Shown piece by piece: positions 1 to 56,285 of a DNA stretch of 64,000 nt. Origin of the DNA: Anthopleura xanthogrammica. Its lineage: Eukaryota > Cnidaria > Anthozoa > Actiniaria > Actiniidae. The notes beneath the pieces were generated by a model. It saw only the letters and a program-made list of their open reading frames with translations. It did not search any database and had not been told where the DNA came from. Both the position numbers and the translations under genes were made by a program. The stretch is from contig OZ025214.1 in NCBI GenBank assembly GCA_964019055.1, positions 13,106,163 through 13,170,162 on the forward strand, written 5' to 3'. The first letter of the stretch is position 1; each line of letters starts with the position of its first letter.

Positions 1-255
1 GGAGGGAATGAACAACGGGTCGAAGTAAACAAGGAAGGATGTAAGGGACGGATGGAAGGGAAGAGGGAGAGAGAAAGAGAGGAAGCTAGAAACAAAGGAA
101 GGAAAAGGACGGACGGGCAGATGGACAGACTGGGACAGATGGACGGAAACAAGGAAGGAAGAAAGGAGGCAGGTAGCTTGCAGGCAAGGATGTACGTAGG
201 AAAGCAACGAAATAAAGGGACGTAAAGAGGGACGAGGAGAAGCAGGGGAATGGGA
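1..255 (+). repeat. GGAAGG purine-rich tract, intron 13 of ODC copy A
   Basis: Purine-rich degenerate repeat that opens the window, aligned with 23028-23225 in copy C (both begin ggagggaatgaacaa). This places the window edge inside intron 13 of copy A. Confidence 0.75.
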
Positions 256-340
256 AAATTTGAAGAAGAATATGTGTTGCTTTGAGAAAAACATTCTCGA
301 CCAACATGTTGACCAAACGTAGTATTCCTTTCTTCTTCAG

Positions 341-795
341 CTTTCTGTTGGTGACTGGCTGTATTTCGAGAATATGGGTGGTTATACCCGTACTTTATGT
401 ACAGGCTTCAACGGCTTCCCCATCGAAAGATACACCTATTACTATGTCACACCCAAGACTTGGTGAGTATTTTTTTATTATTATTTTTATTTAAGATTTG
501 CCCGCAGGCTGGTGCTGTACAACAGAACACGAGGTCCCCTTCGAGGTACATTGCACCAATTCCCAACCCCTTAAAACTCCCATTCCCATCCTGCAATCAA
601 CCCATTAAGAAATTATTAGTAAAGGCCAGACACTGAGGGTGTCACTGCCAGGGTTTCTTTACGTCCTCAGTGGTTCTTTTACGTCCCTCCGATGCAGGGT
701 TAGGTAGTGTGGAGAGACGGGACCGCCATTTTACGTGGTCATCCGAGCCACGGGAAGGTCTAACCATTTGTAGATGTAATTACAAAGGCAGCACC

Positions 796-834
<39 letters not shown>

Positions 835-2601
835 CCGTGGCTTGAACCCACGACCTCCCGCACGAAAGTCAGTTATACAGTTATACAAGCTTTCTAACAC
901 AGTCTGGTAATAAATCAGTATTTTAAAGCCACAGTAGTGGTCACTTTGCGGTCCGGGGCTCAATGTATAGGCTGGCACGTCATGGGTGAACATAAATAGT
1001 GTCTTTGGGACTATATGTTCTAATGACAAAATAAGGCAATAGAGGCTTTGCACCATCACGTGACTCACGTAGCGTCGGTTAGCAACGGTAACTACGCCGC
1101 CATGACAGGAGGCATGTAAACCATAACAAAGTATAGTAACGAACGCGATTAGAAACGTTTTTTGTGTTGTTGGGTGTTGAAAACGCTCTGAAAGAGACAC
1201 AAATGTCAGAATTTTAAACGTTCCGAAGCAGATCAAGCATTAAAGCTAAAAAACAAGATGGATTTTAAAGCGAAGACGAAAAAAAAGGCTTGGAAACATA
1301 CGACGAGAGGCTGTTTCGAAAGGGCAAGTTAAGAACCCAATGGTTTGCTCGCTTCATTTTCACCAAGTTGTTTTCAAAGTGCAGCTAGCTTATTCCTTCA
1401 AATAAATTGAGTGGTACAAATTATTCGAGATCGATGTTTTTTTGCTTTGTTTATCTAGGAGAACCAGCAAAAGCCTACGACGAAACTCACTGGACTCCTA
1501 AATCGATCGCGATGGGTCACGCGCATCTTGTTCTGTTTCTCAATCAGCCAAAGTGTCTTCGCTAAAAAGGCACAACCGTTCGATGGAAAGATCTTTGAAA
1601 AATGCGAATGCACACTTTGAAAGAAGAAAATCTATGTTGCAATCAGTTGCAGATTCGAGTTGTCCGAACTCCATCTCTGTCTCTTGCACGTGTTTCTTTG
1701 GGAAAGTTTGTATGAATATTTTATGTATTACTGTTAACTAGGGCTTGTTCAAAGCGCAGTCGCCTTTTCAAAGATCTTTCCATCGAACGGTTGTGCCTTT
1801 TTGTCCTTTTTTGCAAAGGAACTTTGGCTGATTGAGAAACAGAACAAGATGTGTGACCCATCGCGATCGATTTAGGAGCCCAGTCTGGATGAGTTTCGTC
1901 GTAGGCTTTTGCTGGTTCTCCTAGATAAACAAAGCAAAAAAACATCGATCTCGAATTGTACCACTCAATTTATTTGAAGGAATAAGCTAGTTGCACTTTG
2001 AAAACAACTTGGTAAAAATGAAGCGAGCAAACCATTGGGTTCTTAACTTGCCCTTTCGAAACAGCCTCTCGTCGTATGTTTCCAAGCTATTTTTTTCATC
2101 TTCGCTTTAAAACCTCTCTTGTTTTTTCGTCTTGATGCTTGAACTGCTTCGGAATGATAAAAAATCTTACATTTGTATCTCTTTCAGAGCGTTTTCAACA
2201 TCCAACAACACAAAAAACTTTTCTAATCGCGTTCGTTACTATACTTTGTTATGGTTTACATGCCTCCTGTCATGGCGGCGTAGTTACCGTTGCTAACCGA
2301 CGCTACGCGAGTCACGTGATGGTGCAAAGCCTCTATACTTCATTTCTTTGCTTCCAGGATTTGTTACCGAAGAATGCATGCACCTTCATTTAACATGTTT
2401 TCCCATAGTAGACCTCTGTTACCATGTATTAAATATTTTAGTAAATGTCGTTAAAACTCATTTAATTTTGTTTTTTATTTTTAATTTTGGAATCTCAAAA
2501 CTTTGCAACCTTTATTTTTACAATGAAAAACTATTTTGATTTTCAGGGAAACAGTCAAGCCGGACATGGAGAAATTCGGTTATGATATTTTAAAGGTCTA
2601 G
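341..2601 (+). CDS. ODC1-like: ODC-family decarboxylase, copy A (3' end only)
   Basis: These are the last two coding exons of an ornithine-decarboxylase family gene whose upstream exons lie outside the window. The exons are 341-462 and 2547-2601 (stop TAG). They match exons 14 and 15 of copies B and C in length (122 and 55 nt) and phase, and encode the C-terminal barrel starting [16 protein letters not shown]. The tyrosine of MGGYT corresponds to PLP-contacting Tyr389 of mammalian ODC. The protein ends about 17 residues after the YYYVTPKTW motif, so the roughly 37-residue proteasome-targeting tail of vertebrate ODC is absent. Sequence before 341 is a purine-rich GGAAGG tract homologous to intron 13 of copy C. 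The intron 463-2546 carries a large inverted-repeat insertion. Whether this copy is intact upstream cannot be told; in the visible part nothing is broken. Confidence 0.85.
476..900. repeat. Dispersed SINE-like repeat in intron 14 of copy A
   Basis: The block 660-890 (gggttaggtagtgtggagag ... ggcttgaacccacgacctcc) recurs at 10680-10870 in ODC-B intron 6, in part at 60840-61110 in NAGK intron 4, and reversed near 34150-34260. The GAACCCACGACCTCC part looks like a tRNA T-arm (B-box) region. It is absent from the matching intron of copy C. Confidence 0.55.
900..1039 (+). other. Ancestral intron-14 segment shared by copies A and C
   Basis: Sequence from about 900 to 1039 is nearly identical to 23521-23655 in copy C and is missing from copy B, whose intron 14 is only 127 bp. 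It shows that A and C are the closer pair in the array. Confidence 0.75.
1040..2335. mobile_element. 1.3-kb foldback element in intron 14 of ODC copy A
   Basis: Two arms of roughly 590 bp (1040-1625 and about 1745-2335) are inverted copies of each other around a spacer of about 120 bp. Both ends read TAGAGGCTTTGCACCATCAC inward. The corresponding intron of copy C (around 23655) is uninterrupted (gacaaaataagtcaatactt), giving a natural empty site and implying a 2-3 bp TA/ATA target duplication. Open frames at 811-1236 and 2139-2393 are mirror images within or overlapping the arms and show no protein family, so I treat it as non-coding. Confidence 0.8.
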
Positions 2602-4108: not shown

Positions 4109-7100
4109 ATGTCAACTTCAGGTAAGATTTCACCAATTATGACTAGTTCACTGTAATTTATATAATGTTATTTAGGATATATTATTAAAACCTAAAAAAA
4201 AAAACGTAATAAAAACGAACATTCGATAACAGATCACATCAGAAAGTTAACTTGAATTTGCATATAATAAGTCGAACATTAAACTAGAAAGAGCGTTCGA
4301 AGTTTAGTTGCTTTTTAGCCATTAACAAGTGTAACTAGTCTTAACATGTTGCAAGTGAGTTAAGGCGGGTTCCTTTTTGCTATTGACATAAATAATCTTT
4401 ATTTAAAATATATACAACAACACACGTGTTATAGTGTTAACCGAAGACGTTCAATATCGATATCTCGTCTCATTTTGTTCAGCTTAGTTGGAAGCCTCAA
4501 CGATTTACTAGTTATTTATTTTCTCAAAACAAAGTCATTTTCTTCGTTTTCTCGTTTGACTGATCTAATGTCTTAAGGAAGCTCGGAATGGTTTTCCTTG
4601 AACGAGCGCGCGCGTGCTCTAAATGACGTAGCACTGAATCATTTGAAATGTAAATAGGAAAATTTTGTCCCAAAAAACCTCATACTTAAACTAAAATAAC
4701 TCAAAAACTGGACGGTAAAATATCTTAAAACTTTGCATGTGGTTTTTATTTAATGGTTCGTAAGTGCTAAGAAAAAGTTAAAACAATTTGTAATGGGGAA
4801 CGTTCTGAAATAAATTTCATTGATTTTTGAGAATTCCTCATTACAGAATTTTTTCTTTCTCGGTATAATCAAAGATTGGATCATGAAGTTCAAACATTCC
4901 AATTTTAAAGGATTTTCACCGTGCGGTTTTTGAGTTATGATTTCTTAAATGAAAAATTTTGCACACATTTGAAGTGTTCTATCGTTGTCATAGCAACGTG
5001 TTACGTCATATTTTTCTTTCCATTCCAACCTTTACTTTATGGTCTTTCGTCTTCTGGGTCAACTTACGGTCATATATTGGCCATATAAAGTTTTTCAGGG
5101 TTATTTTTGTTAGTCTATATGCAAGTTCCAAAACCCTTTATAGCCTCCTTAACTGTCTATACGATTGCTTTAATATGCAAATGTCACAAAATCATAGCTG
5201 GCCAAACGCGTGACTGACTGATCGACTGTTCCACCAACCGACTAGAGTTTGTGTTGTTTGTTCTTGTTTGACTCAGTTATCTTTTTTTTTTTTTTTTAGG
5301 AGCAATAGTAATTTCTGACAATGTCAATGTCGGGGACATTCTTGATTTCTTGGTGACTGCACCTGGGCGAGAGGTAAATACCACCTGCATTATTCTTTGG
5401 GTGAGCAACTAGTATTGTAAACCTGATATCCTAATCCTTAGACCTTCTTGCTTTTTCTTCATTCAGGACTGCGATGATGGGTTTTATGCAATGGATATCA
5501 ATAAAGTGGCTGAAAGATATCAAAAGGTATTATAAAAAATATATTTCACTGCTTATACTATCAAAACTGAAATGTGTATATGATCGTACCATACTGTGAA
5601 ATGTACTCAGAAAAAACTTCTGAGCCCCAGATGGGAATCGAACCCACGACCCTCCGTATATTAGTCGGACGCTCTATCAAAACTACCATTACCAACCAAT
5701 CATATTACCAACAACTGCCTCTACCCATCGTATGACCACTACCACCATCAAGCACTAGTACTAGTGATGTTAGCAACACTACCATTACCAACCAATACCA
5801 TAATCAACAACTACCTCTACCCATCCTATGACCACTACCACCATCAAGCACTAGTACTAGTGCTAGCAACACTACCATTACCAACCAATACCATTATCAA
5901 CAACTACCTCTACCCATCCTATGACCACTACCACCATCAAGCATTAGTACTAGTGCTAGTAACACTACCATTACCAACCAATACCATAATCAACAACTAC
6001 CTCTACCCATCCTATGACCACTACCACCATCAAGCACTAGTACTAGTGATGCTAGCAACACTACCATTACCAACCAATACCATTATCAACAACTACCTCT
6101 ACCCATCCTATGACCACTACCACCATCAAGCACTAGTACTAGTGATGTTAGCAACACTACCATTACCAACCAATACCATTATCAACAACTACCTCTACCC
6201 ATTGTATGACCACTACCACCATCAAGCACTAGTACTAGTGATGTTAGCAACACTACCATTACCAACCAATACCATAATCAACAACTACCTCTACCCATTG
6301 TATGACCACTACCACCATCAAGCACTAGTACTAGTGATGCTAGCAACACTACCATTACCAACCAATACCATTATCAACAATTACAACTGCCTCTACCCAT
6401 CGTATGACCACTACCACTAAAGTTGTTTTCCTCTCGCCACCAATTATAAAATCAACTAATAGCCTTAATTTCTTCGTTTCCAGTGGGTAGAACTTCTCCC
6501 GAGGATACGTCCATTTTATGGTAAGTTGTTTAAAACATTTTACTATCCATATCACTTTTTTCGCAACCTTTTTCAAGCATTAAGCTGCCACACTCAGTTG
6601 ACAAAATACGCCCCTAGCGGAGAACGTGCACTCAGTTGATGGAGTATTGCACTTTTGGAGAAACATATAGAATCAGAAGAGAGTGCCATCAAACAACTCT
6701 TCTAACCTACCAGCTGAGTTGACCTTCAGAACAAACTCAATGTCAACTAATCAGAATTGAGGATTTGACATCGTATTTTGATTAGCATTTCCTATTATTC
6801 TGCCAAGAGAATTTATGAAATACGAGTTCTCCCTTCTCTATATTAATCGTAAACGCTAGTCGAACTCATGGCGGAATTTAATTTCAGTCAACAAGAAATG
6901 TCTACATTGTATACTCGGAAAATGCTCGAAAAATGCTAACCAAAAATAGTGAACCATAATTCTTTTCGGGGAAGGTGATCAACTCAGCTGGATAAAATCG
7001 AGCACAAGAATTGAACCCAGGCCACATTGGTGTAAGGCGGCGCATTAGCCAGGCACAACACCCTTACTCAGTACCCTGGTGCAAATCTTGGACAGGATCC

Positions 7101-10100
7101 TGTCAGGATCCTACCAGGATCTTACCAGGATCCTACTCAGGATCTTGAACAGGATCTTGTACAAGATCCTACAGGATCCTACAACATCTTCTACAAGATC
7201 CTACCAAGATCCTACAGGATCCTGTAGGAGCTTACAGGATCTTGTACAAGATCCTGCCAGGATCCAACAGGATCTTACCAGGATCCTACTAAGGATCTTG
7301 GACAGGATCCTGTATCAAGATTCTACAGGATCTTGTACAATATCCTACAGGATCCTTCAGGATCTTATACAAGATCCTACAGGATGTTGTTAGGATCCTA
7401 GACTAATCCTGTATACATTGCAGTAATTAATTTATAATTTTCTAATTTGCAATATTGTAAAAAGGTTTTATTTTTTTATTTAAAAAAAATTAGAAATTCC
7501 AAAAAAAAACAAAAAAAACGAAAGAGTACAAACCCAACATTTTTTTTTGGCCTCACCCTCCCCTCCCTTGTGCTCTTCTATTTCCCTACCTCCTTCTACT
7601 CTACCACCCCTCCCATTCAATGCTTGCACCCCTCCCCACTCTGTTTTAATAGTTATTATTATTGTCTCATTATTTTATTTTTTACTTACCTCAGTGGGGC
7701 TTGAACCTCCAACCTTTGGCTTACAAGCCCAACACTTTACCAACTTGACCATTGAAGAATTATTAAAAGAATCACCATACATTTGCATTTTATTTATGAC
7801 TTTCAATTCCATGATGTCATTGAAGTGATTGAAATTCATGCATGCTTTGTAGTAGCAAGATATTACCCCTGGATCCTACAGGATCCTACCCAGGATCTTC
7901 CCTGGTGCAAATCTTACACAGGATCCTGTAGGATATTGATACAGGATCCTGTACAAGATCCTTAGTAGGATCCTGGTAAGATCCTGGTAGGATCCTGACA
8001 GGATCCTGTCCAAGATTTGCACCAGGGTTGTTCACACTCAATTAGGATCTTATCAGGATCCTAATTAGGATGTTGTTCAGGATCCTACCCAGGATCTTTT
8101 TCACACTCAATTAGGATCTTATCAGGATCCTAATTAGGATCTTTTACAGGATCCTACCCAGGATCTTGTTCACACTCAATTAGGATCTTATTCAGGATCC
8201 TAATTAGGATCTTTTACAGGATCCTACCCAGGATCTTGTTCACACTCAATTAGGATCTTATTCAGGATCCTAATTAGGATGTTGTTCAGGATCCTACCCA
8301 GGATCTTGTTCATACTCAATTAGGATCTTATCCAGTATCCTAATTAGGATGTTGTTCAGGATCCTACCCAGGATCTTGTTCATACTCAATTAGGATCTTA
8401 TTCAGGATCCTAATTAGGATGTTGTTCAGGATCCTACCCAGGATCTTGTTCACACTCAATTAGGATCTTATCCAGGATCCTAATTAGGATGTTGTTCAGG
8501 ATCCTACCCAGGATCTTGTTCACACTCAATTAGGATCTTATCCAGTATCCTAATTAGGATGTTGTTCAGGATCCTACCCAGGATCTTGTTCATACTCAAT
8601 TAGGATCTTATTCAGGATCCTAATTAGGATGTTGTTCAGGATCCTACCCAGGATCTTGTTCATACTCAATTAGGATCTTATTCAGGATCCTAATTAGGAT
8701 GTTGTTCAGGATCCTACCCAGGATCTTGTTCATACTCAATTAGGATCTTATTCAGGATCCTAATTAGGATGTTGTTCAGGATCCTACCCAGGATCTTGTT
8801 CACACTCAATTAGGATCTTATCCAGGATCCTAATTAGGATGTTGTTCAGGATCCTACCCAGGATCTTGTTCATACTCAATTAGGATCTTATTCAGGATCC
8901 TAATTAGGATGTTGTTCAGGATCCTACCCAGGATCTTGTTCATACTCAATTAGGATCTTATTCAGGATCCTAATTAGGATCTTTTACAGGATCCTGATGC
9001 TATATTTTAAGATCTTACATAGGATCCTGCTAGGATCTTATTTAGGATCCTAATTCTTCTTAGGATATTACATAGGAATGTAATCCTGTGCAAGATCCTA
9101 TTCTTATGCAGGATCCTACCTAGGATCCTAACTAGAATCCTGTTCCTAAGCAAGATCAGTCCTACTCAGGATCCTATTTCTAAACAAGATCCTATAGGAT
9201 CCTACAGGATCTTACAGGATCCTGTAGGATCCTGTGTAAGATTTGCATCAGGGTAGTCGCTGGTTTTTGTACCTTAGCTTACCTTACCATATTTTTGATT
9301 TCAATTCAGTGGTCAAGTGCAATCCTGATCCAGTTCTTTTACGTCTTTTATCCAAGCTGGGATCTGGTTTTGACTGTTCTAGCAAGGTAGGTATGTCGAT
9401 AAAGGAATAAGCATCATTTTAATCCATTGGAGCAATATGCAATGTTATATTTGTCTGGACAATTTGGCTGAATGGGTTGATTGAATGATTACATGATGGA
9501 ATGGATAAATAAGATTGATAGATGAATGGCAGGGATTGGATGAATTTAAGGATTGGCGGGATGGGATGGTATGTGTGGATTATCTACGAAATGTTGAGCT
9601 CCGTGCATGCAATACTTAAAGAGATATTACCTTTCAAATGTTTGAGTGGCAAAAGCTCTAATGAGCCTTTACATCTATGTAAAAGTTAAGAGTTTTTAAA
9701 GCTGCCTCAAGCAAACAGTATTTCATGTGTCGACTTAACATTGCAGGGAAGAACTACTTTTGTCATGCTTTTAATGTTGATTTTGCGGTAGTTTGATTAA
9801 AAATATAAATGCTTATGCTAATGGAGCATAATGTATAAACATTGACGTCAGCAAGCATCCTCCTGTAGATGGTGTCATATGCGCAAAGAATAAATTAAAT
9901 TATATTACAATTTTTCAAGTGGTGTTCTTTTTGTGTATAGGGAGAGATTAGATTAGTCATCGAGCAGGGAGTCAATCCACAAGATATAATCTACGCCCAC
10001 ACATGCAAAAAACTCTCTCACATCAGGTAAGACCTTTCTGCATGCATATAGGTATATCCAATTGATACGCGTCCTCCTATCTACCTATGGCATTCATTGC

Positions 10101-13100
10101 GTTGCATCAGTTTTTGCTTCCTTTTCCCTTGCCAAATCTGCGTGCAGCAACGTTTTTCTCGAATATCTTAAAATTCTGACATAATGTTAGAGCTTTAGTT
10201 AAATATCCTTTACCCAATAGACCGAATGCCAATATGGCCGCCATTGACTTTCAGAAATAAAAACCTTATCTTAAAAAATAAGCACCACCATCAGAAAGAG
10301 CAGGCAAAAATATATTTTTGGAAAGTTTTATTGCTAAAAAAAGAATTCAAGTGAAGCTATTTCGAATCAAAATTACAGAGATTTGTATGTGTTCAGTGAT
10401 CTGTTTCCTTGATAGCCTCGTTGTGGTGTTTTTAACATTTTAAAATTCTTATGACTTCTCAAGAATTTAATATTTTTGTCTCAAACTTTGTAACTTTGTT
10501 TATATCATTCTAATCCGCTATAATTTTAATGTGGTGGTCAACTAAAATATGAATTTAAAAAATTATGATAATGAAGTGGCGGCCATATTGGCATTCGGTC
10601 AATACCAATCCCACAATCAACCTATTAAGATACAGGCTAGAGGTTTCTGACGTTCTCAGTGCTTCTTTTACCACACGTTCTTGCGATGCAGGGTTAGGTA
10701 GTGTGGAGAGACGGGACTGCCATTAACTTGGTCATCCGAGAAAGTCTAACCCTTTGCAGATGTTAATACAATGACAGCACCAACTCTTCAGTTATTTTAA
10801 GACCCTGATAGTTAGTGCTGCTGGAGATTGAGCCAATGACCTCCCGCGTGGAAGTCCAATGCTCAACCATCTCAGCCAACCGAATAGCGATATCTAATAT
10901 ATTAAGCTCTGACTTGATGCCATAGGCTTTACTCAAATGTTAATTTATATTATGGTTCAAAGACATGATTTCTAAATATAAACTATTGATGTGTGGATTA
11001 GGTTTGCAAAACAATGTGGAGTGTCGATGATGACCTTTGACTGCGAGGCAGAGCTGCACAAGATAAAGGAAACACATCCAGAATCCGAGTGAGTCGTAAC
11101 ATATTAATTAATCCTATAGCATCCCATCTATCTTTACATCCATCCCATCTATCTTTACATCCAACTATCCTTTTCATCCATCCTATTCCGTTCATCCTTA
11201 TCATCATCCTGAAATTTCTCCTGTATTGGGTACACAAAATGATCTTTATCTAAAATAAATAACACTTATTCTTTCGATTGCAGAATTCTCCTTCGATTCC
11301 AACCATCTAATGTCAGCGCTCGATACGAAACGGTAAAGATGGATAATAATTTTCAATAATCTTGAATTACAGAGAGCCTGTATTCATTGTTTGCGTTCAC
11401 ACTAACATTATGCATGTATCGACATGCAGCATCGTTATGTACGTGGGCTCCCTGCATAGGTCCATGTGCCCGGATTGAATTGTCAAGATGATGGCATCAT
11501 TAAAAACCCTATTACTGGTCTATATCTCTCATAGAATGCACTTAAGTTTGGCGTTCCTCTGCGTGATTGCAAAGATCTTCTCATGATTGCGAAGAGCCTG
11601 GGGTTGAATGTCGTTGGTGTAAGGTCAGAGTCATAAACCTTATTAACAAAATTGCCCCTTTTTGGCTACATTGTCATTTTCTTACGGGCTGACGTCACGT
11701 CCTGTCATTTTTTATAGTTTTCACGTGGGCTCCGACAACATTGATGCAAAACCTTATAGCGATGCTGTTAAAGGGGCTAAAACCATATTTGACATTGGGG
11801 TAAGATGATGGATGATCGGCTCTTTCTTGGTGTTGCAGGACACCTGAAGCATGAACACAATAAAACAATAGCCAAGAACAAAGAACTTAGAACGAAACAA
11901 TACTCTGCAATACAAAGAACCCTAACCTTGAATACAATACTTCCTGCAACACCAAGAGAGTAGACCCGAATGAATGTCATAAATATTTCATGATTTTATT
12001 GACAAATATACTGTGTTTTACATGTATGGCATTTGAAATATATCAGCCAAATAAGTTTCACCTATCAAGCGACAAAAAATCCGCTATTTACTTCTCTATT
12101 CACACTAATTGTCGTAACTTTACTTCAAGGAGAAGGTTGGTTTTTCTTTCAACATCCTGAACATTGGTGGAGGATTTCCAGGGAAAGAGAGCGAGTATCC
12201 TTTTGAAAAGGTAAACAATTTCCCCTGCCCAATGCAAGTAGTCTATTTACGCAGCCGCTGTTAGAGTCATCTCTACGTTCTTTACCAATGCAAGATACTC
12301 GCGTATATTATACATCTAAGATATCTGCAATAAAACAATCAATGTTCGACTACACCGTGTGAGACGTTCCCTGATGGTGTGATTTCAATGCCAAGAGAAG
12401 AATGTTTCACAAATTTTATGTAACTCACCAACTTTAAGATATCTTTCCTAGATATGTGATGTGGTCAATTCTGCTCTTGACAAATACTTTCCCGTCGGGT
12501 GTGGTGTGAGGATAATTGCTGAGCCCGGGAGGTATTTTGCTTGTTCGCCTTACACTCTTGTGACGAATGTTACGACTGTCAAAGAGATTAAAAAGCACCA
12601 ACTACAAGAGAACGAGAAGGAGAATTCTCCTGTCCCACTCACTGAAGAAGGCCAAGAAACGGTAAGTCGTTGAGGCCCATACACAAAGAGGAACCGAAAA
12701 GAAGCACCGCGTGGGCCCGTTTACACTAGGAATTGCCCTATTTCACTATGACGTCACATCAAAGCAATCTATTGTTTTAACGCTAAGGATCATGGTCGCC
12801 AGAGGGGGCAAAATAGCAGCAAAACAAATTAAATTACAATAAAATTTGGTTTATGATATAGTTGAAAGTGAGAGCAGCAAACTTTTGCACTAAATATCCC
12901 GATCAAAAGAAAAGTTAGCCTAAATTTCTATTATTCTTGCTCATGTAAACAAGCTGTGACGTCATAGTAAAATAGGGCACTTGAGCAGCAATTTCAATAG
13001 GAGGATTTTATCGCAACCCCACTGAAATGTGTAAAAGCGAGTCCATTGAATGGTGATTTTACGACAACAGATCCCACGTGTAAAAGAAGCGAGTCGCCTT

Positions 13101-14608
13101 TATGGTGATTTTACGACAACAGATCGCTGCCAAGTCGCCACAAATTCGAACATACTCCAGATTAAGAGAAAGTCATAGCGATTTTAACATGAATAGTATT
13201 AAGAAACGCTGTTTCATTTTAGAGAAAAAAAATCAATATGGATGACCACGTTACCTCTTATTCGAGTATTGCTAGGTAAACCTTAACGCACGTTTACACC
13301 AGCAATTTTGTCGCGTGACTAGAGTTGCGATTTCAACGACGATTTTATTGCAATCTCGATCGCGAGTGTAAACGGCCGACGATTTTATTGCAACTTTCAG
13401 ATATATTTTCTAAAAAACAGTAAGTTTTTTTACCAACGGCCAACGGATAGAATGTTTTTTTTTGTGTGTATCACTGGTGGTCATCCTCGATCGCCAGATT
13501 TACTTTCGTGGGATGGCAGTATTTTTGGTATTTTTCAAGTGAAAATCGCCGCAGGTTGCACTAAATTTTGAGCATGTTCGAATTGGTGGCGACTTGGCTG
13601 CGATCTGTCGCTGCGATTTTACACTTGCGATTTGGGGTTGCGATAAAATCGCCGTTCAAATCGCCGCTCAAGTCGCGCGATACAATTACTAATGTAACCG
13701 TAACTCAGGAAGAAAACGTAGGCCCCTAGTTATCCGGTTCCAATTATTGAAATTCTCTCCACACTGCTTAAATGTTTACTAATTTGCGCGCAATCTTTTT
13801 AAAGGTGCACAATCGTGACAACGTTGCACCCAACAATTGCAGAGGTGGATTCCAATTTTTATTCATGGTTTGTTTTCCTCTAGGGATACATGTATTACGT
13901 AGACGATGGGGTATTTGGTTCATTTATAGAAGTTCTGTACATGTTTGATGATCTTGAGTATATTCCAAAACCACTCGGAGAAACAGACGACATTCTCTTT
14001 TCTTCTTACATTTGGGGACAGACCCTTGACACCCTAGTGGATAGGATCAGCAAGATTTGTATGTTACCAAAGGTAAAGGAATTAACGTTGAAGGGACTAA
14101 GCAAACAAGGATGGATGGGTATAAGTATGCAAGGTTGAAAGAAGGGACGTGTGGAGGGGAATGAGAAAAGGGGGAAAGTAGAGAAAAATTAAAGCAACCA
14201 ATAAATCAACAGAGAAAAATGGATGAAGAATTATTTGAAAAAAGAAAATGTGCTACTTTATACGACCAAGATTTTGAACGAGTGTTTATCACTTTCGTCC
14301 TCAGCTTTCTGTTGGTGACTGGCTGTATTTCGAGAATATGGGTGCTTATACCCTTGCACTTTCCACAAACTTCAACGGCTTCCCCATGGAACGATATACT
14401 TATTACTATGTCACACCCAAGACTTGGTGAGTATGAAATTATATATATACAAGCTTTCTCTAGCACACTGCCTGACTTTGCTTTTAAGAAAGTAAAAGGA
14501 AATAGCAAGGGAAAAGTACAGAGAACATATTTCTCGATTTCTATCATTTTCAGGGAAACTATCAAAACAGACATGGAAGAATTCGATTTTGATATTTTGA
14601 AGTTTTAG
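4109..14608 (+). CDS. ODC1-like: ODC-family decarboxylase, copy B (lacks the active-site cysteine)
   Basis: Fold-type III PLP decarboxylase, ODC family, 436 aa from 15 exons: 4109-4121, 5300-5373, 5467-5526, 6484-6520, 9310-9386, 9941-10026, 11002-11088, 11284-11332, 11535-11623, 11718-11799, 12130-12210, 12452-12661, 13884-14072, 14305-14426, 14554-14608. All junctions are GT/AG and phases close. Visible motifs: [11 protein letters not shown] (K64, equivalent to PLP-lysine 69), [35 protein letters not shown] (D323, equivalent to Asp332), and ENMGAYT. The segment that is WGPTCDGLDRI in human ODC reads [12 protein letters not shown]. Leu363 replaces catalytic Cys360, and one residue is inserted. 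No vertebrate-type C-terminal degron follows. Known ODC converts ornithine to putrescine; with this substitution, catalysis, altered chemistry or an antizyme-binding role are all possible (inference). The start is the ATG whose tiny exon splices in phase to GAIVIS. Confidence 0.88.
4423..4428. promoter_or_regulatory. CACGTG E-box in intron 1 of ODC copy B
   Basis: A CACGTG hexamer inside ACACGTGT lies about 300 bp into intron 1. Mammalian ODC1 has functional Myc/Max E-boxes in intron 1, so the position is suggestive. I saw no equivalent in intron 1 of copy C. A single hexamer can occur by chance. Confidence 0.25.
5565..5690 (-). repeat. tRNA-derived SINE in intron 3 of ODC copy B
   Basis: Nearly identical to 51086-51225. 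Read on the minus strand it carries a B-box-like GTGGGTTCGATTCCCA and the start of a tRNA-like head. Truncated at its tRNA end by the minisatellite that follows. Confidence 0.65.
5690..6418 (+). repeat. 96-bp minisatellite in intron 3 of ODC copy B
   Basis: About 7.5 tandem units of about 96 bp (some 93), each with ctctacccatcctatgacca and the palindrome ACTAGTACTAGT. Unit lengths are multiples of three and stop-free in one frame, which creates a spurious 218-codon ORF. The same array sits in intron 3 of copy C, so it predates that duplication. Confidence 0.9.
7074..9253. mobile_element. Composite GGATCC-rich inverted-repeat element in intron 4 of ODC copy B
   Basis: Outer ends are CCCTGGTGCAAATCTTGGAC at 7074 and the inverted relative (gtaagatttgcatcaggg) ending at 9253. 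Two more inverted ends lie inside: right-facing at 7900, left-facing ending at 8027. The two elements therefore overlap or nest (7074-8027 and 7900-9253). Flanks agree with a TA target duplication. The body is dense in the palindrome AGGATCCT. A tRNA-like stretch occupies about 7692-7758 on the minus strand (A box TGGTCAAGTTGG, B box GGTTCAAGCCC, anticodon-loop CTTGTAA), so a SINE head seems embedded. Intron 4 of copy C lacks the element. Confidence 0.75.
8028..8990 (+). repeat. 70-bp minisatellite with GGATCC palindromes
   Basis: About 14 tandem 70-bp units, each with cactcaattaggatcttat, TCAGGATCCTAATTAGGATG and CAGGATCCTACCCAGGATCT. The period is exact between 8451 and 8521. It lies inside the composite element above and has evidently expanded by unequal exchange or slippage. 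Confidence 0.9.
10216..10604. mobile_element. Inverted-repeat element in intron 6 of ODC copy B
   Basis: Left end AATAGACCGAATGCCAATAT with ggccgcca continuing; right end is its near-perfect inverse (tggcggccatattggcattc, ggtcaata). About 390 bp, no ORF, followed within 30 bp by the SINE-like repeat at 10640-10880. Confidence 0.75.
10630..10880. repeat. SINE-like repeat, second copy
   Basis: Shares gggttaggtagtgtggagag and the ctcttcagttattttaagac block with 660-890. It ends in a tRNA-like GACCTCCCGCGTGGAAGTCC and ctcaaccatctcagccaac stretch. Confidence 0.6.
12715..13690. mobile_element. Inverted-repeat elements in intron 12 of ODC copy B
   Basis: An inner pair (gccctatttcactatgacgt at about 12733 and its inverse ending about 12982) marks one element of about 250 bp. 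From about 13000 to 13690 there are further inverted blocks: TCGCAAC / GTTGCGA, GATTTTATTGCAA, and gtgtaaacgg opposite cgtttacac. The boundaries of the second element are unclear. No ORF. Confidence 0.55.
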
Positions 14609-16762: not shown

Positions 16763-19700
16763 ATGTCAACAACATGTAATATATCTTCAGGTAAGGTAAT
16801 TCATCCTTAATGCTGCAATATTTAGTTTTCTAATAAAGCTATCTATTTAACAATTAGAAGACGAACTCGAGATTTCTATCGGCTGATAGTTGACGAGGGG
16901 CTCCGGCCCCGAGTCAACTATCAAAGCCGATAGAAATCGAGAGTTCGTCTTCTAATTGTTTTAGTAAAAATCTCAACTAAACTATACTATACTAAACTAA
17001 ACTAAACTAAACTAAACTTCACAAAAGCGCGAAGGAAAAGCCGCCATTTTTTCAAAACAAGTCCGGCTTTCTCTACCCACTATCTATCGGCTGATAGATA
17101 GTGAGTACGTTAGCCAATCAGAATGCAGGATTTGCAATAGTATAGTAGTAGAATTTTACTAAATATATATATTTAGATTAATATATAGTTTACTCACTAA
17201 AATATTTTAGCTTAGCTTTACAATATATTCTCCAAAATAAGAATGGAAAAAACAATCAATAAAATATACACATATCCCAAAAATATAGTTAAAATAAGAC
17301 AACAATTATATATAAAACCATTTATAATAATAAAATATAGACCTTGTTTGAATAGACCAATTCACGGTTTTCGGCGGCCAAATGGGGCAAACCCGGCAAA
17401 ATATATAGAAATCTGGATCACTTTGATTCCCGTAACTCCGCTCAATTTTGTTGGATTTTCAAAATTTACACTTCAATAACCAGCAGGCATGAACAGCAGC
17501 TGTCGGACTGAAAATAAGATTAATATAAGTATTTTAACTGCCCTTTACGAGTCACTCGTTTTCTATAATTTCCATAACTCATTCATGCATTTCCTTCTCG
17601 TTTGACTGATCTATTGTTTTCCACTACTGCTGATCTAAACCTCATTGAGCTTTTGTGTTTTTTTTTTTGTTTTGTTTGACTCGGTTATCTGTTGTTGTTT
17701 TTTAGGAGCAATAGTAATTTCTGAGAATGTCAATGTCCGTGACATTGTGGATTACTTGGTAACTGTACCTGGGCGAGAGGTAAATCCCATGATTATAGTG
17801 GCAATTCTGGTCATTCTGATCAATCTACTGATCAGGATGCCTTACATGGATGCACGACTATTTCCCTCCCCTACACAATCCCCCCCTCCCCCACCCCCCA
17901 CCACCACACACACAAACCAACAAAGCAAATGTTTATATTGGAGATATTTTACTCTTTTCCTTCTGTTTTTCCTATCTCTTCTAAGGACAACGACGATGGG
18001 TTTTACGCAATGAGCATCGATAATGTGGCTGAAAGATATCAAAAGGTATTATTGGGGAAAAACAAATTCACTACTGATAGTATCAAAACTAATACTACCA
18101 ATCAATACCATTACCAACATCTGCCTCTACCCATCGTACGACCAATAACACCTCTACCCATCGTACGACCAATAACACCTCTACCCATCGTACGACCAAT
18201 AACACCTCTACCCATCGTACGACCAATAACACCTCTACCCATCGTACGACCAATAACACCTCTACCCATCGTACGACCAATAACACCTCTACTCATCGTA
18301 CGACCACTACCAGCATCAAGCACTAGTACTAGTGATAAACACGATTTGCGTATGATGATGGGATATGAAAAATATTCACACTACTATAGTGATGCTAGCA
18401 AAACTACCATTACCAACCAATACCATAATCAACAACTACCTCTACCCATCCTATGACCACTACCACCATCAAGCACTAGTACTAGTGATGTTAGCAACAC
18501 TACCATTACCAACCAATATCATAATCAACAACTACCTCTACCCATCCTATGACCACTACCACCATCAAGCACTAGTACTAGTGCTAGCAACACTACCATT
18601 ACCAACCAATACCATTATCAACAACTACCTCTACCCATTGTATGACCACTACCACCATCAAGCACTAGTACTAGTGATGCTAGCAACACTACCATTACCA
18701 ACCAATACCATTATCAACAACTACCTCTACCCATCCTATGACCACTACCACCATCAAGCACTAGTACTAGTGATGTTAGCAACACTACCATTACCAACCA
18801 ATACCATAATCAACAACTACCTCTACCCATTGTATGACCACTACCACCATCAAGCACTAGTACTAGTGATGCTAGCAACACTACCATTACCAACCAATAC
18901 CATTATCAACAATTACAACTGCCTCTACCCATGGTATGACCACTACCGCAGATGTTTTCCCCTCCACTATCAATACTACACAGACCATCACATATAAAAC
19001 ATTATAATTATAGAATTTAATCCCGTCAATTTCTTCGTTACCAGTGGGTAGAGCTTCTCCCTAGGATACGTCCCTTTTATGGTAAGTTGTTTAAAACATT
19101 TTAAACTAATCCATATAACTTTTTTCGAAACCTTTTTGAAGCACTAAATAAGCTACCACACTCAGTCGATTTAATACGGCCCTAGTGGAGCCCGGAACGT
19201 GCACTCAGTTGATGGAGTATGACACTAGTGGAGAACGTGCACTCAATTGAAGGAGTATGACACTAGTGGAGAACGTGCACTCATTTGATGGAGTATGACA
19301 CTAGTGGAGAACGTGCACTCATTTGATGGAGTATGACACTAGTGGAGAACGTGCACTCAGTTGATGGAGTATGACACTAGTGAAATAGAAATGAAGAAGA
19401 GAAGCATCAAGCAACTCTTTTATCCTATGACACCGAACCTGAGAATTGAACCCAGGAGACATAGGTGACAGGCAGCGCATTAGCGGATACACCATTTTTA
19501 CTAGACGCTGCTTGTGTATCTTAACAGACAAAATTTATTATTTTTTTGTCTGAATTCAGCGGTCAAGTGTAATCCTGATCCAGTTCTGGTAAATCTTTTA
19601 TCCAAGCTGGGCACTGGCTTTGACTGTGCTAGTAAGGTAGGTATGTTGAGAAAGGAATAATCATCATTTTAATCCAGTGGAACACTCGGCAAAGTTTTCT

Positions 19701-22700
19701 TCTCTTTACACTTATTGCAATAAAAGTTATATTTGTCTGGGCAATTTGGCTGAATGGGTTGATTGAATGACTACATGATAGAATGTATAAATAAGATGGA
19801 TAGATGAATGGCAAGGATTGGATGAATATAAATATTGACGGGATGAGATGGTATGTGTGCATTAGATTAATAAAAAGTTTGGATTGATTGGAGAATAAGT
19901 CGGGAACATTACGAACTGAGTTCGTTTTGTGTAACTTTTCTTATTCGAGGGAGAGATTAGATTAGCCATCGAGCAGGGAGTCAGTCCACAAGATATAATC
20001 TACGCCCACACCTGCAAAAAACTCTCTCACATCAGGTAAGACTTTTCTGCATGCATATAGGTATATCCTGTCTACCTTTGAATGTCATCGATCTCTTATT
20101 CGAGGGAGAGATTAGATTAGCCTTCGAGCAGGGAGTCAGTCCACAAGATATAATCTACGCCCACACCTGCAAAAAACTGTCCCACATCAGGTAAAGCCTT
20201 TCTGCATGCATATAGGTATATCCTGTCTACCTTTGAATGTCATCGATCTCTTATTCGAGGGAGAGATTAGATTAGCCTTCGAGCAGGGAGTCAGTCCACA
20301 AGATATAATCTACGCCCACACCTGCAAAAAACTCTCTCACATCAGGTAAAGCGTTTCTGCATGCATATAGGTATATCCTATTGATATGCGTTCTCCTGCC
20401 TACCTTGCGTTGCTTTGCGGTTTCTAGAATGCAGCGCAGTGCTCCGGGCGGTGACAATAACTGGGAGTAACTTTGTGTAATAAATTCTGACTTGATGCAA
20501 ATTGAAGGCGTTCGTTGCATTTTACTTTATGCTTGGTATAGAGATATGATCCCTAAATATAAATTTTGATGTGTGGATTAGGTTTGCAAAACAATGTGGA
20601 GTGTCGATGATGACCTTTGACTGCGAGGCAGAGCTGCACAAGATAAAGGAAACATATCCAGAATCCGAGTGAGTTACAACATCTATCAACTAATACTATT
20701 CCATCCCATCTATCTTTAAATCCATCCATCCTATTCCATTCATCCGTATCATTTTCCTGAAACTTCTCCTATATTGGTTACACAAAATGATCTTTATCTA
20801 ACATAAATAACACTTATTCTTGTGATTGCAGAATCCTCATTCGATTCCGACCATCTAATCTCAGCGCTCGATTTGAAACGGTAAAGATGGATAAAGATTT
20901 CCAATCACCTTGAATTACAGAGAGCCCAGAGAGCCCGTATTCATTGTTTGCGTTAACGCTGACATTATGCATGTATCGATTTTATTGATTAAGACTGCAG
21001 CATCGTTATGTACCTGGGCTTCCTGCGTAAAATCTTACCCAAAACACCCAAGGTCCATGTGTCCTGAGTGAATTGTTTAGTTGCGGGTATCATTTAAAAT
21101 CCTATTACTGGTCTATATCTCTCATAGAATGGATTTAAGTTTGGCGTTCCTCTGCGTGACTGCAAAGATCTTCTCATGAATGCGAAGAGCCTGGGACTGA
21201 ATGTCGTTGGTGTAAGGTAAGAGTCATCAACCTTATTTACAAAATTGCCCCTTTTTATCTACATTGTCATTTTCTTACGGGCTGACGTCACGTCCTGTCA
21301 TTTTTTTAGTTTTCACGTGGGCTCCGAAAGCACTGATGCAAAACCTTATGGAGAGGCTATTAAAATGGCTAAAACCATATTTGGTATTGGGGTAAGATTG
21401 ATGGATATCTTAGATAGATCATGAACTTATTGATAAAATTATACTTATTCTTCTGGGTTAAGTCTTACTCATAACCATCAAGTATTTTACATGTATGGCA
21501 TTTGAAATATATTAACTTTATAAAGTTCCTACTATTCGAGGTCACTCACATCACTGTTCACTTCCAATTGTCGTAACATTACTTCAAGGGAAAGGTTGGT
21601 TTTACCTTCAGGATCCTGGACATTGGTGGAGGATTTCCAGGGAAAGAGAACGAATTTCCTTTTGAAAAGGTAAACAAGTTCCCACGGATACTCTCGTACA
21701 TTATACATCTAAGATATCTGCAATGAAACAATCAATGTTCGACTACACCGTGTGAGACGTTCCCTAATGGTGTGATTTCAATGCCACGACAAGATGTTTT
21801 GCCAATTTTATAGACCCCTTTCACGTGACGTCAAAGCAGCTAGCTCAATTTGGAGGACAAAACAAAAGAATTTCAATCTCCTGAGAATTGGAACCTATTG
21901 TCTTGTCCTCCAAACTGAGCTGCATCCCGACATGCTTCAAGGAGTTTATATAGCTACCAACTTTAAAACGCTTTTCCTAGATATGCGATGTGGTCAACTT
22001 GGCTCTTGACAAATACTTTCCCGTCGGGTGTGGTGTGAGCATTATTGCTGAGCCCGGGAGGTATTTTGCTTGTTCGCCTTACACTCTTGTGACGAATGTT
22101 ACGACTGTCAAAGAGATCAAAAAGCACCATATACAAGAGAACGAGAAGGAGAATTCTCCTGTCCCATTCACTGAAGAAGGCCAAGAAACGGTAAGTTGTT
22201 GAGTTTCAAGCATTGCAAAACAATGCATCGTACCAATTCTCTCCACACTGCTTAGGTTAGTTATAGTCCAGTCCCGGATTCCCTTTCTGTCCGCTCCGAC
22301 AGGCTGAGGTCGCGGAGGAAAGAGAGTACACAAAAACATGGTGATCGCGCGGTTACGATTCCTGTGTGATAATCAAAATGGCGGAAGCGAATGAAGGTGA
22401 ACTTGTGTATACACGATATCAGTCTCATTTCGGAAAGCAATTTATTGATTCAGTGAAATATGCACTTGGAAAAACCAACTATTGTTTTATACCGAAGTTT
22501 GAACAGTTACAGGCGATTTACGGATTGACAGTTGGAAAGGATGTATTTGTGAATTTAAGTTTTCTTCGATACTTTTTTTTTGACAGCTCCGATCCACGTG
22601 AGGTAAACAAAACACTGACCCCAACATATTGCAGGCTCTTTAAAAAGAACTTTAATCTGATTGGCTCATTCTGCACATGCGCATGCAAATAATACTGGAC

Positions 22701-23924
22701 TCTCTTTCCTCAGCGACCTCAGCCTGTCGGAACGGACAGAAAGGGAGTCCGGGACTGGACTACATTAGTTATTGCTCGAGTTTTATTTATGCTTTGTTTT
22801 CCTCTAGGGATACATGTATTACGTAGACGATGGGGTATTTGGTTCATTTATAAAAATTGTGCATTATGATATTGACTTTGGTCCAAAAGCACTTGGAACC
22901 ACCGACAGTATTCTCTTTCCTTCTTGCATTTGGGGACAGACCTGTGCCACCTTGGATAGGATTAGCAAGAATAGTATGCTACCAAAGGTAAAGAATTTAT
23001 GTTGAAGGGTAGGAAAGAAGGTACGAATTGGAGGGAATGAACAAAGGGACGCAGCAAACAAGGATGGATGAATTCACGGAAGGATGGAAGGGACGGATGG
23101 AAGGGAGAGAGGGAGAAAGGAAGCTAGAAAGAAAGGAAGGAAAGGGACGGACGGAAGCAAGGAAGGAAGAAGGGAGACAGGCAGCTTGCAGGCAGGGATG
23201 TTGGAAAGCAACGAGATAAAATGCTTTGAGAAAAACATTCTCGACCAACATGTTGACCGAGTGTAGAATTCCTTTCTTCTTCAGCTTTCTGTTGGTGACT
23301 GGCTGTATTTCGAGAATATGGGTGGTTATACCCGTGCAGTATCCACAAACTTCAACGGCTTCCCCATGGAACCATATACATATTACTATGTCACACCCAA
23401 GACTTGGTGAGTATGAAATTATACAAGCTTTCTAGTACGCTGCCTGACTTTGTTGCTAAGAAACGGTTATAAACTGATATAAAGAGAGTAAAATTCCAAA
23501 ATAACTTAATTCAGGGCAAGTCTGGTAATAAATCAGTATTTTAAAGCCACAGTAGTGGTCACTTTGCGGTCCGGGGCTCAATGTATAGGCTGGCATGTCA
23601 TGGGTGAACATAAATAGTGTCTTTGGGACTATATGTTCTAATGACAAAATAAGTCAATACTTCATTTCTTTGCTTCCAGGATTTGTTATCGACGAATGCA
23701 TGCACCTTCATTTAACATGTTTTCCCATAGTAGACCTCTGTTACCATGTATTAAATATTTTAGTAAATGTCGTTAAAACTCATTTAATTTATACTTTTTA
23801 TTTTTATTTTCGGAATCTCAAAACTTTGCAACCTTTATTTTTACAATGAAAAACTATTTTGATTTTCAGGGAAACAGTCAAACCGGACATGGAGAAATTC
23901 GGTTATGATATTTTAAAGTTCTAG
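16763..23924 (+). CDS. ODC1-like: ODC-family decarboxylase, copy C (triplicated exon 6)
   Basis: Complete paralogue of copy B, 438 aa when one exon 6 is used. Exons: 16763-16790, 17706-17779, 17986-18045, 19045-19081, 19560-19636, one of 19950-20035 / 20105-20190 / 20260-20345, 20582-20668, 20832-20880, 21128-21216, 21310-21391, 21589-21669, 21981-22190, 22808-22987, 23285-23406, 23870-23924. Motifs: [11 protein letters not shown] (K69), [36 protein letters not shown] (D328), ENMGGYT. The active-site segment reads [11 protein letters not shown]. Cys366 (human Cys360) is kept, but the adjacent Asp361, which holds the substrate's distal amino group in ODC, is Ala367. Substrate choice may therefore differ from ornithine (inference). 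It also lacks the C-terminal degron. An ATTAAA hexamer at 23949 could be the poly(A) signal. Confidence 0.9.
16850..16960. mobile_element. Near-perfect 110-bp hairpin in intron 1 of ODC copy C
   Basis: ACAATTAGAAGACGAACTCG at left is the inverse of the right end, and the arms run inward through ctatcggctgatagttgac to a loop around gaggggctccggccccg. A related ctatcggctgatagatagtg block sits at 17085-17105, followed by tagccaatcagaatgcagga, so the two may be ends or fragments of one MITE family. Confidence 0.7.
18119..18310 (+). repeat. 27-bp satellite in intron 3 of ODC copy C
   Basis: About seven units of CCTCTACCCATCGTACGACC plus aataaca. The unit is a shortened piece of the neighbouring 96-bp unit (ctctacccatcgtatgacca), so a part of that repeat expanded separately. 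Copy B lacks this sub-array. Apparent ORFs on both strands here are repeat artefacts. Confidence 0.85.
18385..18950 (+). repeat. 96-bp minisatellite in intron 3 of ODC copy C
   Basis: About six units of the same repeat as 5690-6418, in the same intron and orientation of the paralogue, with a final variant unit caattacaactgcctctacc present in both arrays. Confidence 0.9.
19190..19385 (+). repeat. 38-bp satellite in intron 4 of ODC copy C
   Basis: About five units of ACGTGCACTCAGTTGATGGA plus gtatgacactagtggaga. Intron 4 of copy B has only one to two degenerate units (6615-6660), so the expansion is specific to copy C or was lost in B. Confidence 0.85.
19950..20345 (+). other. Tandemly triplicated exon 6 of ODC copy C (mutually exclusive by frame)
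   Basis: Exon 6 occurs three times, at 19950-20035, 20105-20190 and 20260-20345, with an exact 155-bp period (86-bp exon plus 69-bp intron). Each copy has its own AG acceptor (ending ttcgag) and GTAAGA or GTAAAG donor. Each encodes [20 protein letters not shown] and onward, with x = Ile in the first and Phe in the other two. The second copy carries extra silent changes, so the copies are not simple assembly stutter. The exon is 86 nt, entered in phase 0 and left in phase 2. Joining two copies in series puts the second in another frame and gives a TAG after five codons. Only one copy can be used in a productive mRNA. Copy B has a single exon 6 (9941-10026). Confidence 0.85.
21807..21958. mobile_element. 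MITE family 3 copy in ODC copy C intron 11
   Basis: Ends TATAGACCCCTTTCACGTGA and the inverse (tgcttcaaggagtttata). Arms carry AGCTCAATTTGGAGGACAAA and gacaagacaata. The same element occurs at 32259-32397 and, in inverted orientation, at 47009-47152. Confidence 0.8.
22264..22762 (+). mobile_element. 499-bp TIR element carrying a helicase-like gene fragment (ODC copy C intron 12)
   Basis: Terminal inverted repeats of about 70 bp (TAGTCCAGTCCCGGATTCCC and onward; inverse ends at 22762). Flanking ggttagtta / cattagtta agree in seven of nine bases, a candidate target duplication. Between them is a 108-codon frame (22366-22692). Its stretch [20 protein letters not shown] resembles the segment just before the Walker A motif in RecQ-like helicases (usual pattern EQ..AI..L..GKDVFVxLPTGxGKS). 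The frame then diverges without the GKS loop, so no active helicase is encoded. The matching intron of copy B lacks the element. Helicase similarity is from memory of the family. Confidence 0.55.
23000..23225 (+). repeat. GGAAGG purine-rich tract, intron 13 of ODC copy C
   Basis: Degenerate GGAAGGRR/GGACGGA repeat; homologous to positions 1-255, which is intron 13 of copy A. Intron 13 of copy B has only a weak counterpart (14070-14230). Long frames on both strands are low-complexity artefacts. Confidence 0.8.

Positions 23925-38131: not shown

Positions 38132-56285
<18,154 letters not shown>

What the first reader, a model, noticed from the sequence alone, without database searches (positions are those of the whole stretch)
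19950..20345. Triplicated ODC exon that the reading frame forces to be mutually exclusive
Three exon-6 copies at an exact 155-bp period all keep usable splice sites and full coding potential. The exon is 86 nt, so any two joined in series hit a TAG after five codons; a productive mRNA uses exactly one. The copies differ by one amino acid (Ile/Phe in RLAxEQGV) and silent changes. The exon covers the segment after the GTGFDCxS loop, including the Glu that lines the PLP pocket in ODC (Glu94 region). It could be a newborn mutually exclusive exon cluster, or a passive triplication that throttles ODC output because mis-splicing yields nonsense mRNA.
Basis: partly seen in the sequence, partly recalled or inferred. 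Interest (0 to 1): 0.85.

Follow-up and report, generated by a model that had tools for sequence, protein, structure and literature searches.

The report
Recent triplicated exon in anemone gene
In one member of a tandem family of ornithine-decarboxylase-like genes of what is probably a sea anemone, one exon has recently been copied into three nearly identical pieces; only one of them can be used per message, but the copies look like a by-product of repeat-prone DNA rather than a built switch.

Summary
Exon 6 of an intact 15-exon ODC-like gene (gene 3, window 16763-23924, +) is present three times at 19950-20035, 20105-20190 and 20260-20345, period 155 bp, with 69-nt introns between copies. mRNAs with none, two or three copies hit a stop; each single copy gives a 438-aa frame. 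The copies differ by one residue (Ile99/Phe99) and two silent bases.

Two neighbouring paralogues have a single exon 6. The middle copy reads like copy 3 at its 5' side and copy 1 at its 3' side, the mark of unequal crossing-over from two copies to three. The repeat unit carries only 11 nt of intron 5, joined at a 5-nt microhomology (TCTTA), so copies 2 and 3 lost the native acceptor context and score weaker than copy 1. The copies are too young to show constraint, Phe is absent at that site in 113 homologues, and gene 3 holds three other minisatellites. Gene 3 is not canonical ODC: Asp361 is Ala and Asp332 is replaced or displaced; a canonical gene lies on another contig.

Most likely a passive tandem exon duplication with copy 1 used by default. 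No RNA was available. New member of a known kind.

The parts
16763..23924 (+). Gene 3, ODC-like paralogue: 15 exons, 438-aa frame with any single exon 6
   Evidence: gene model with GT/AG at every intron
19560..19636 (+). Exon 5, ends in phase 0 (...FDCASK)
19950..20035 (+). Exon 6 copy 1 (6a), Ile at residue 99; native intron-5 acceptor context; donor CAG|GTAAGA
20036..20104 (+). 69-nt intron between copies 1 and 2; follows gene 1 intron 6 up to the joint, with one difference at +8
20105..20190 (+). Exon 6 copy 2 (6b), Phe at 99, two silent changes; hybrid of copy 3 (5' side) and copy 1 (3' side)
20191..20259 (+). 69-nt intron between copies 2 and 3; differs from the first only at +5, +6 and +8
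20260..20345 (+). Exon 6 copy 3 (6c), Phe at 99; followed by a gene-2-like intron 6
19939..19949 (+). The 11 nt of intron 5 (TCTTATTCGAG) that are part of the repeat unit; TCTTA is the microhomology at the joint
20582..20668 (+). Exon 7; needs the two-base overhang of exactly one exon 6
4109..14608 (+). Gene 2, neighbouring paralogue, 15 exons, single exon 6 at 9941-10026 (Ile)
1..2601 (+). 3' end of gene 1 (15 exons, starts about 9.8 kb upstream of the window, in L007); single exon 6 (Ile)
18124..18306 (+). 27-bp minisatellite, 6.8 copies, intron 3 of gene 3
18379..18916 (+). 96-bp minisatellite, 5.6 copies, intron 3 of gene 3
19195..19382 (+). 38-bp minisatellite, 4.9 copies, intron 4 of gene 3

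Best explanation
A young, passive tandem exon duplication. Inferred history: (1) on one allele, the exon 6/intron 6 region of gene 3 received gene-1-type intron sequence by exchange with the upstream paralogue; (2) that copy was joined in front of an unconverted copy at a 5-nt microhomology (TCTTA), giving two copies; (3) an unequal crossover in the identical stretch of intron 6 gave three, with a hybrid middle copy. Inferred function: pre-mRNA is spliced mainly 5-6a-7, because 6a alone keeps the native branch-point and pyrimidine context of intron 5. The 69-nt introns are probably too short for two copies to be joined efficiently, and joined, triple or skipped forms carry premature stops and would be removed. 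If 6b or 6c is used, the protein changes only at residue 99. Shown: sequence, frames, paralogue comparison, hybrid structure, acceptor scores. Inferred: the order of events and all splicing behaviour.
For: Genes 1 and 2 have one exon 6, both with Ile: Ile and one copy are taken as ancestral. Of the four sites where 6a and 6c differ up to intron position +8, 6b matches 6c at three (exon base 19, intron +5 and +6) and neither at +8; beyond that 6b equals 6a at all 18 sites where 6a and 6c differ in the 155-bp comparison (these 18 sit in one diverged stretch and may be few events). The intron after 6a and 6b follows gene 1, that after 6c follows gene 2. Exon is no more conserved than intron: 6a/6b 3 of 86 exon versus 3 of 69 intron; 6b/6c 2 of 86 versus 1 of the first 34 intron bases (small numbers). 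Only 14 of 258 possible substitutions in the exon make a stop, so open copies are expected at this age. Acceptor score, leave-exon-group-out: 6a 8.1 (32 of 41 real acceptors lower), 6b and 6c 2.1 (11 of 41 lower; 241 of 1260 decoy AGs score as high; 31 of 1260 for 6a). Shortest of 42 family introns is 93 nt against 69. Residue 99: Leu 73, Gln 32, Thr 4, Ile 2, Met 2, Phe 0 of 113 homologues. Three further minisatellites in introns 3-4 of the same gene.
Against: No transcript data. The acceptor model rests on 41 sites from one gene family, and 6b/6c lie inside the range of real acceptors; a first scoring without leave-out put them below all 41, which one search showed to be overstated. The Phe shared by 6b and 6c is also what early divergence would look like. 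All three copies are free of stops, as a selected cluster would be. The 42 introns come from three related genes, so the rarity of 69-nt introns in this genome is untested.
Confidence: 0.74

Rival explanations
1. Newborn mutually exclusive exon cluster: the spliceosome picks one of three copies, 69-nt introns block joining by steric interference, and frame-based decay removes errors, yielding Ile99 and Phe99 isoforms.
For: Frame incompatibility for all multi-copy and no-copy forms. One branch-point candidate is 46 nt from the donor and 23 nt from the acceptor, under the ~50-nt steric threshold cited in PMC7969005 and used in PMC5740500 (passages). Each copy has GT/AG ends.
Against: Isoforms differ at one residue; weaker acceptors for 6b/6c; no inverted repeats of 10 nt or more found at 19560-20700 that could act as competing RNA structures; a second branch-point candidate lies 52 nt away, just over the threshold; more than 90% of the human tandem exon duplication events have orthologues in bony fish (PMC9741552, passages), so a very young one is untypical of functional cases.
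Confidence: 0.12
2. Passive triplication that lowers output: decoy copies divert splicing into nonsense mRNA and throttle gene 3.
For: 5 of 8 exon combinations are unproductive.
Against: Combination counts say nothing of rates; short introns and weaker inner acceptors would limit double inclusion; a canonical ODC is a different gene, so this is not ODC output.
Confidence: 0.08
3. Assembly artefact: the array is a stutter or a chimera of gene 1 and gene 3 reads.
For: Gene-1-like introns inside gene 3; near-identical copies; no reads available.
Against: Copies differ at 3 exon sites plus intron sites; the gene-3 acceptor joint stands before all three copies, and the other three places that one search returned match only up to query base 149, 119 and 91, short of spanning the first inner joint (one search scores best candidates only); the genome is in 125 contigs, this one 13.5 Mb.
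Confidence: 0.06

Closest known systems
Tandem duplicated exons / mutually exclusive exon clusters (human set in PMC5740500, passages; OGDH in PMC7969005, passages; U2AF1 PMC5224494, SNAP25 PMC2581893, Dscam PMC1397879, abstracts in listings only)
   Same: Adjacent homologous exons of equal length and phase; combined inclusion unproductive; short intervening introns in some
   Different: Copies here are 96.5-98.8% identical in the exon and differ by one residue; no evidence of regulated choice; not shared by paralogues; human cases are mostly ancient (PMC9741552, passages)
Disease-type exon duplications (e.g. dystrophin, PMC7350004; seen only as title and start of abstract)
   Same: Extra exon copies within a gene, where skipping of copies bears on the product
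   Different: Here three copies lie within 400 bp and the frame is recovered by using one of them
ODC paralogues with altered key residues (antizyme inhibitors; planarian ODC-like, PMC5574924, passages)
   Same: Extra ODC-like genes beside a canonical ODC, with changes at key residues
   Different: Here a tandem cluster with Asp361 changed to Ala (gene 3) or Cys360 to Leu (gene 2)

Membership tests
Mutually exclusive exon cluster | Tandem homologous exons, same length and phase, with splice sites | tested here: met
Mutually exclusive exon cluster | Combined inclusion gives no functional product | tested here: met
   all four multi-copy combinations stop at codon 126
Mutually exclusive exon cluster | Junction reads from every copy to flanking exons, none between copies | not testable with these tools
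   no RNA data
Mutually exclusive exon cluster | Donor to branch point under about 50 nt in the intervening intron (steric mechanism, one of several) | tested here: inconclusive
   candidates at 46 and 52 nt, a third at 63 nt too near the acceptor; branch point not mapped; threshold from vertebrate work
Mutually exclusive exon cluster | Competing RNA pairing (docking mechanism, one of several) | tested here: not met
   no inverted repeat of 10 nt or more with an exact seed of 9 at 19560-20700
Mutually exclusive exon cluster | Array kept by descent in relatives or paralogues | tested here: not met
   one exon 6 in genes 1 and 2, one hit for it in gene 0; other species could not be examined at DNA level
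Ornithine decarboxylase (catalytic, canonical) | 18 key residues as listed in PMC5574924 | tested here: not met
   17 of 18 kept in gene 3; Asp361 is Ala. Of the two substrate-contacting Asp named in PMC2217671, 361 is lost and 332 is Tyr or displaced by one residue
ODC/DAP/Arg decarboxylase superfamily | Profile and sequence similarity to ODC | tested here: met
   PF00278 match over cut-off at C9:13128973-13129155; human ODC structure 1d7k, E 1.2e-106

The most novel reading that the evidence does not exclude
A mutually exclusive exon cluster caught at birth in a cnidarian enzyme-family gene: reading frame and 69-nt introns enforce single-copy use at once, unequal crossing-over sets copy number, and Phe99 is the first step of divergence, with copy number perhaps variable between individuals.
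Probability: 0.12. Interest if true: 0.6.

Novelty: new member of a known kind. Interest (0 to 1): 0.36.

Why it matters
Human tandem-duplicated exon events are mostly ancient (PMC9741552, passages), so how such arrays start is seldom seen. This one is young enough that the exchanges that built it can still be read: microhomology joint, paralogue-type intron, hybrid middle copy. It offers a testable starting point: is single-copy use automatic when copies are out of frame and separated by very short introns?

Tried and rejected
Acceptor strength. A first position matrix put 6b and 6c below all 41 real acceptors; with each exon group left out in turn they rank above 11 of 41. I use the second result. 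The donor scores were not re-done with leave-out; the exon-6 donors of genes 1 and 2, which are the same as that of 6a, were in the training set.

Gene model. The first gene 3 model had a wrong acceptor for exon 11 and read into stops; one search mended the model using the gene 1 exon. The gene 2 model failed on a wrong end string and was made.

Label error. In one search the column called D332 was the Asp of the VDDG motif, not residue 332., numbered on guinea pig ODC, corrects this: gene 3 has Tyr there, or the Asp displaced by one residue.

Competing RNA structure: none found. Genome-wide count of ODC-like N-terminal domains (PF02784): not completed, so the count rests on PF00278 (5 matches, which miss gene 2) and on reading the cluster. 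A wider intron-length survey (PF00118) did not complete either; the 42 introns come from three paralogues and are not independent. A protein of this species was not recognised among the 120 listed of 7742 hits: apart from three long predictions (718-765 aa, 40-41% identity) the best is an Actinostola protein at 52%. Literature searches gave little of use. Structure prediction was not run. Taxon is inferred from protein similarity only.

Full report
What was examined. The window is G000:C9:13106163-13170162 of a 290-Mb genome in 125 contigs. Apart from three long predictions at 40-41% identity, the closest listed protein is from the sea anemone Actinostola at 52%, and a canonical ODC of this genome (partial, from exon matches) is 85% identical to an Actinostola protein over 351 residues. 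So the animal is most likely a sea anemone; that is inference.

The gene. Three ODC-like genes lie head to tail on the + strand, each with 15 exons and an intact frame: gene 1 (433 aa, from about 9.8 kb upstream of the window to 2601), gene 2 (436 aa, 4109-14608) and gene 3 (438 aa, 16763-23924). A fourth, gene 0, lies upstream on the other strand. Genes 2 and 3 differ by dN 0.086, dS 0.182 (ratio 0.47), genes 1 and 3 by dN 0.104, dS 0.271 (0.38): moderate constraint, which speaks against pseudogenes.

The array. Exon 6 (86 nt, phase 0 at its start, two bases over at its end) is present at 19950-20035, 20105-20190 and 20260-20345. Copies 1 and 2 differ at 3 exon and 3 intron sites; copies 2 and 3 differ at 2 exon sites and 1 of the first 34 intron sites. 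Products differ only at residue 99, Ile in copy 1, Phe in copies 2 and 3. All eight combinations were translated: single copies are open for 438 codons; skipping stops at codon 105; each of the four multi-copy forms stops at codon 126. In this gene 8 of 13 internal exons have lengths not divisible by three, so most of its exons would also shift the frame if doubled. [quoted passage not shown]

How it arose. Exon 6 is single in genes 1 and 2, with Ile in both. The repeat unit takes in only the last 11 nt of intron 5 (TCTTATTCGAG) and 58 nt of intron 6. Gene 1 intron 6 reads GATCTCTTAAAATT where the array reads GATCTCTTATTCGAG, and upstream of copy 1 stands TTTTCTTATTCGAG, so TCTTA is a 5-nt microhomology at the joint. 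The introns after copies 1 and 2 follow gene 1; the intron after copy 3 follows gene 2. Other stretches of gene 3 are also unusually close to gene 1, such as 98.6% over 141 bp and 96.3% over 271 bp in intron 14 to exon 15, which points to exchange between these genes. The middle copy is a hybrid: it shares Phe and donor positions +5 and +6 with copy 3, and all 18 downstream sites at which copies 1 and 3 differ with copy 1; at +8 all three copies differ. That is what unequal crossing-over of a two-copy array produces. The 18 sites lie in one diverged stretch and may stand for few events. Gene 3 also carries minisatellites of 27, 96 and 38 bp in introns 3 and 4.

How it probably behaves. With scores trained on the other exon groups, the acceptor of copy 1 scores 8.1 (above 32 of 41 real acceptors), those of copies 2 and 3 score 2.1 (above 11 of 41), and 241 of 1260 decoy AGs reach the latter score. 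All three have G at -3, seen in none of the other 41 (C 20, T 17, A 4). The donor of copy 1 scores higher than those of copies 2 and 3 (11.3 against 9.4, without leave-out). The 69-nt introns are shorter than all 42 introns of the three gene models, the array counted as part of intron 6 (shortest 93), and below the 76 bp taken as the likely vertebrate minimum in PMC9438311 (passages), which also gives about 50 bp as the typical short intron of C. elegans. Branch-point candidates lie 46 and 52 nt from the donor, around the ~50-nt steric threshold cited in PMC7969005 (passages). So 5-6a-7 is the expected main product, and joining of copies should be poor. None of this was seen in RNA.

Is there selection on the array? 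Nothing shows it. Only 14 of 258 exon substitutions (5.4%) make a stop, so three open copies with a handful of changes are expected. Phe at residue 99 occurs in 0 of 113 homologues (7 of the 120 listed, of 520 aa or more, were left out), which fits relaxed constraint on copies 2 and 3, though one residue cannot prove it. Glu94 is the same in all copies and in 113 of 113 homologues.

What the protein is. The C4 gene groups with the ODCs of Oculina, Nematostella and Actinostola (100/99 support; 20-row tree with 14 of the 120 listed homologues, three full and three partial proteins of this genome) and has Cys-Asp at 360-361. Genes 0-3 group with four other Actinostola proteins (97/94). Gene 3 keeps 17 of the 18 key residues listed in PMC5574924 (passages) but has Ala at 361, and Tyr or a one-residue shift at 332; gene 2 has Leu at 360; gene 1 keeps both 360 and 361 but is changed at 332. 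Of 113 homologues 109 have Asp at 361, 3 Ala and 1 Cys. [quoted passage not shown] A changed substrate or a non-enzymatic role is therefore likely, and the phrase 'ODC output' should be dropped.

Verdict. A regulated exclusive cluster is not excluded.

Noticed in passing
window 4109-14608 and 16763-23924; L005; L014: Cluster of ODC-like paralogues with altered active sites: gene 3 Asp361 to Ala, gene 2 Cys360 to Leu plus three extra residues in exon 13, gene 0 Cys at 361; the C10 gene also shows Cys-Ala instead of Cys-Asp. Residue 332 is changed in genes 1-3.
   Followed up: partly
window 5674-6417 and 18379-18916: The same 96-bp minisatellite sits in intron 3 of both gene 2 and gene 3, so it predates their split or was exchanged.
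   Followed up: no
window 8028-8995: 70-bp minisatellite, 13.9 copies, 96% match, in intron 4 of gene 2, within a longer stretch rich in AGGATCCT motifs.
   Followed up: no
window 55781-55936: Exon of an SMC3-like protein on the + strand downstream of the cluster; seen as a chance tblastn row, named from a recalled motif (FDEIDQALDP), not tested.
   Followed up: no
window 38918-39563: 91-bp tandem array, 7.1 copies, 97% match; not checked for coding content.
   Followed up: no
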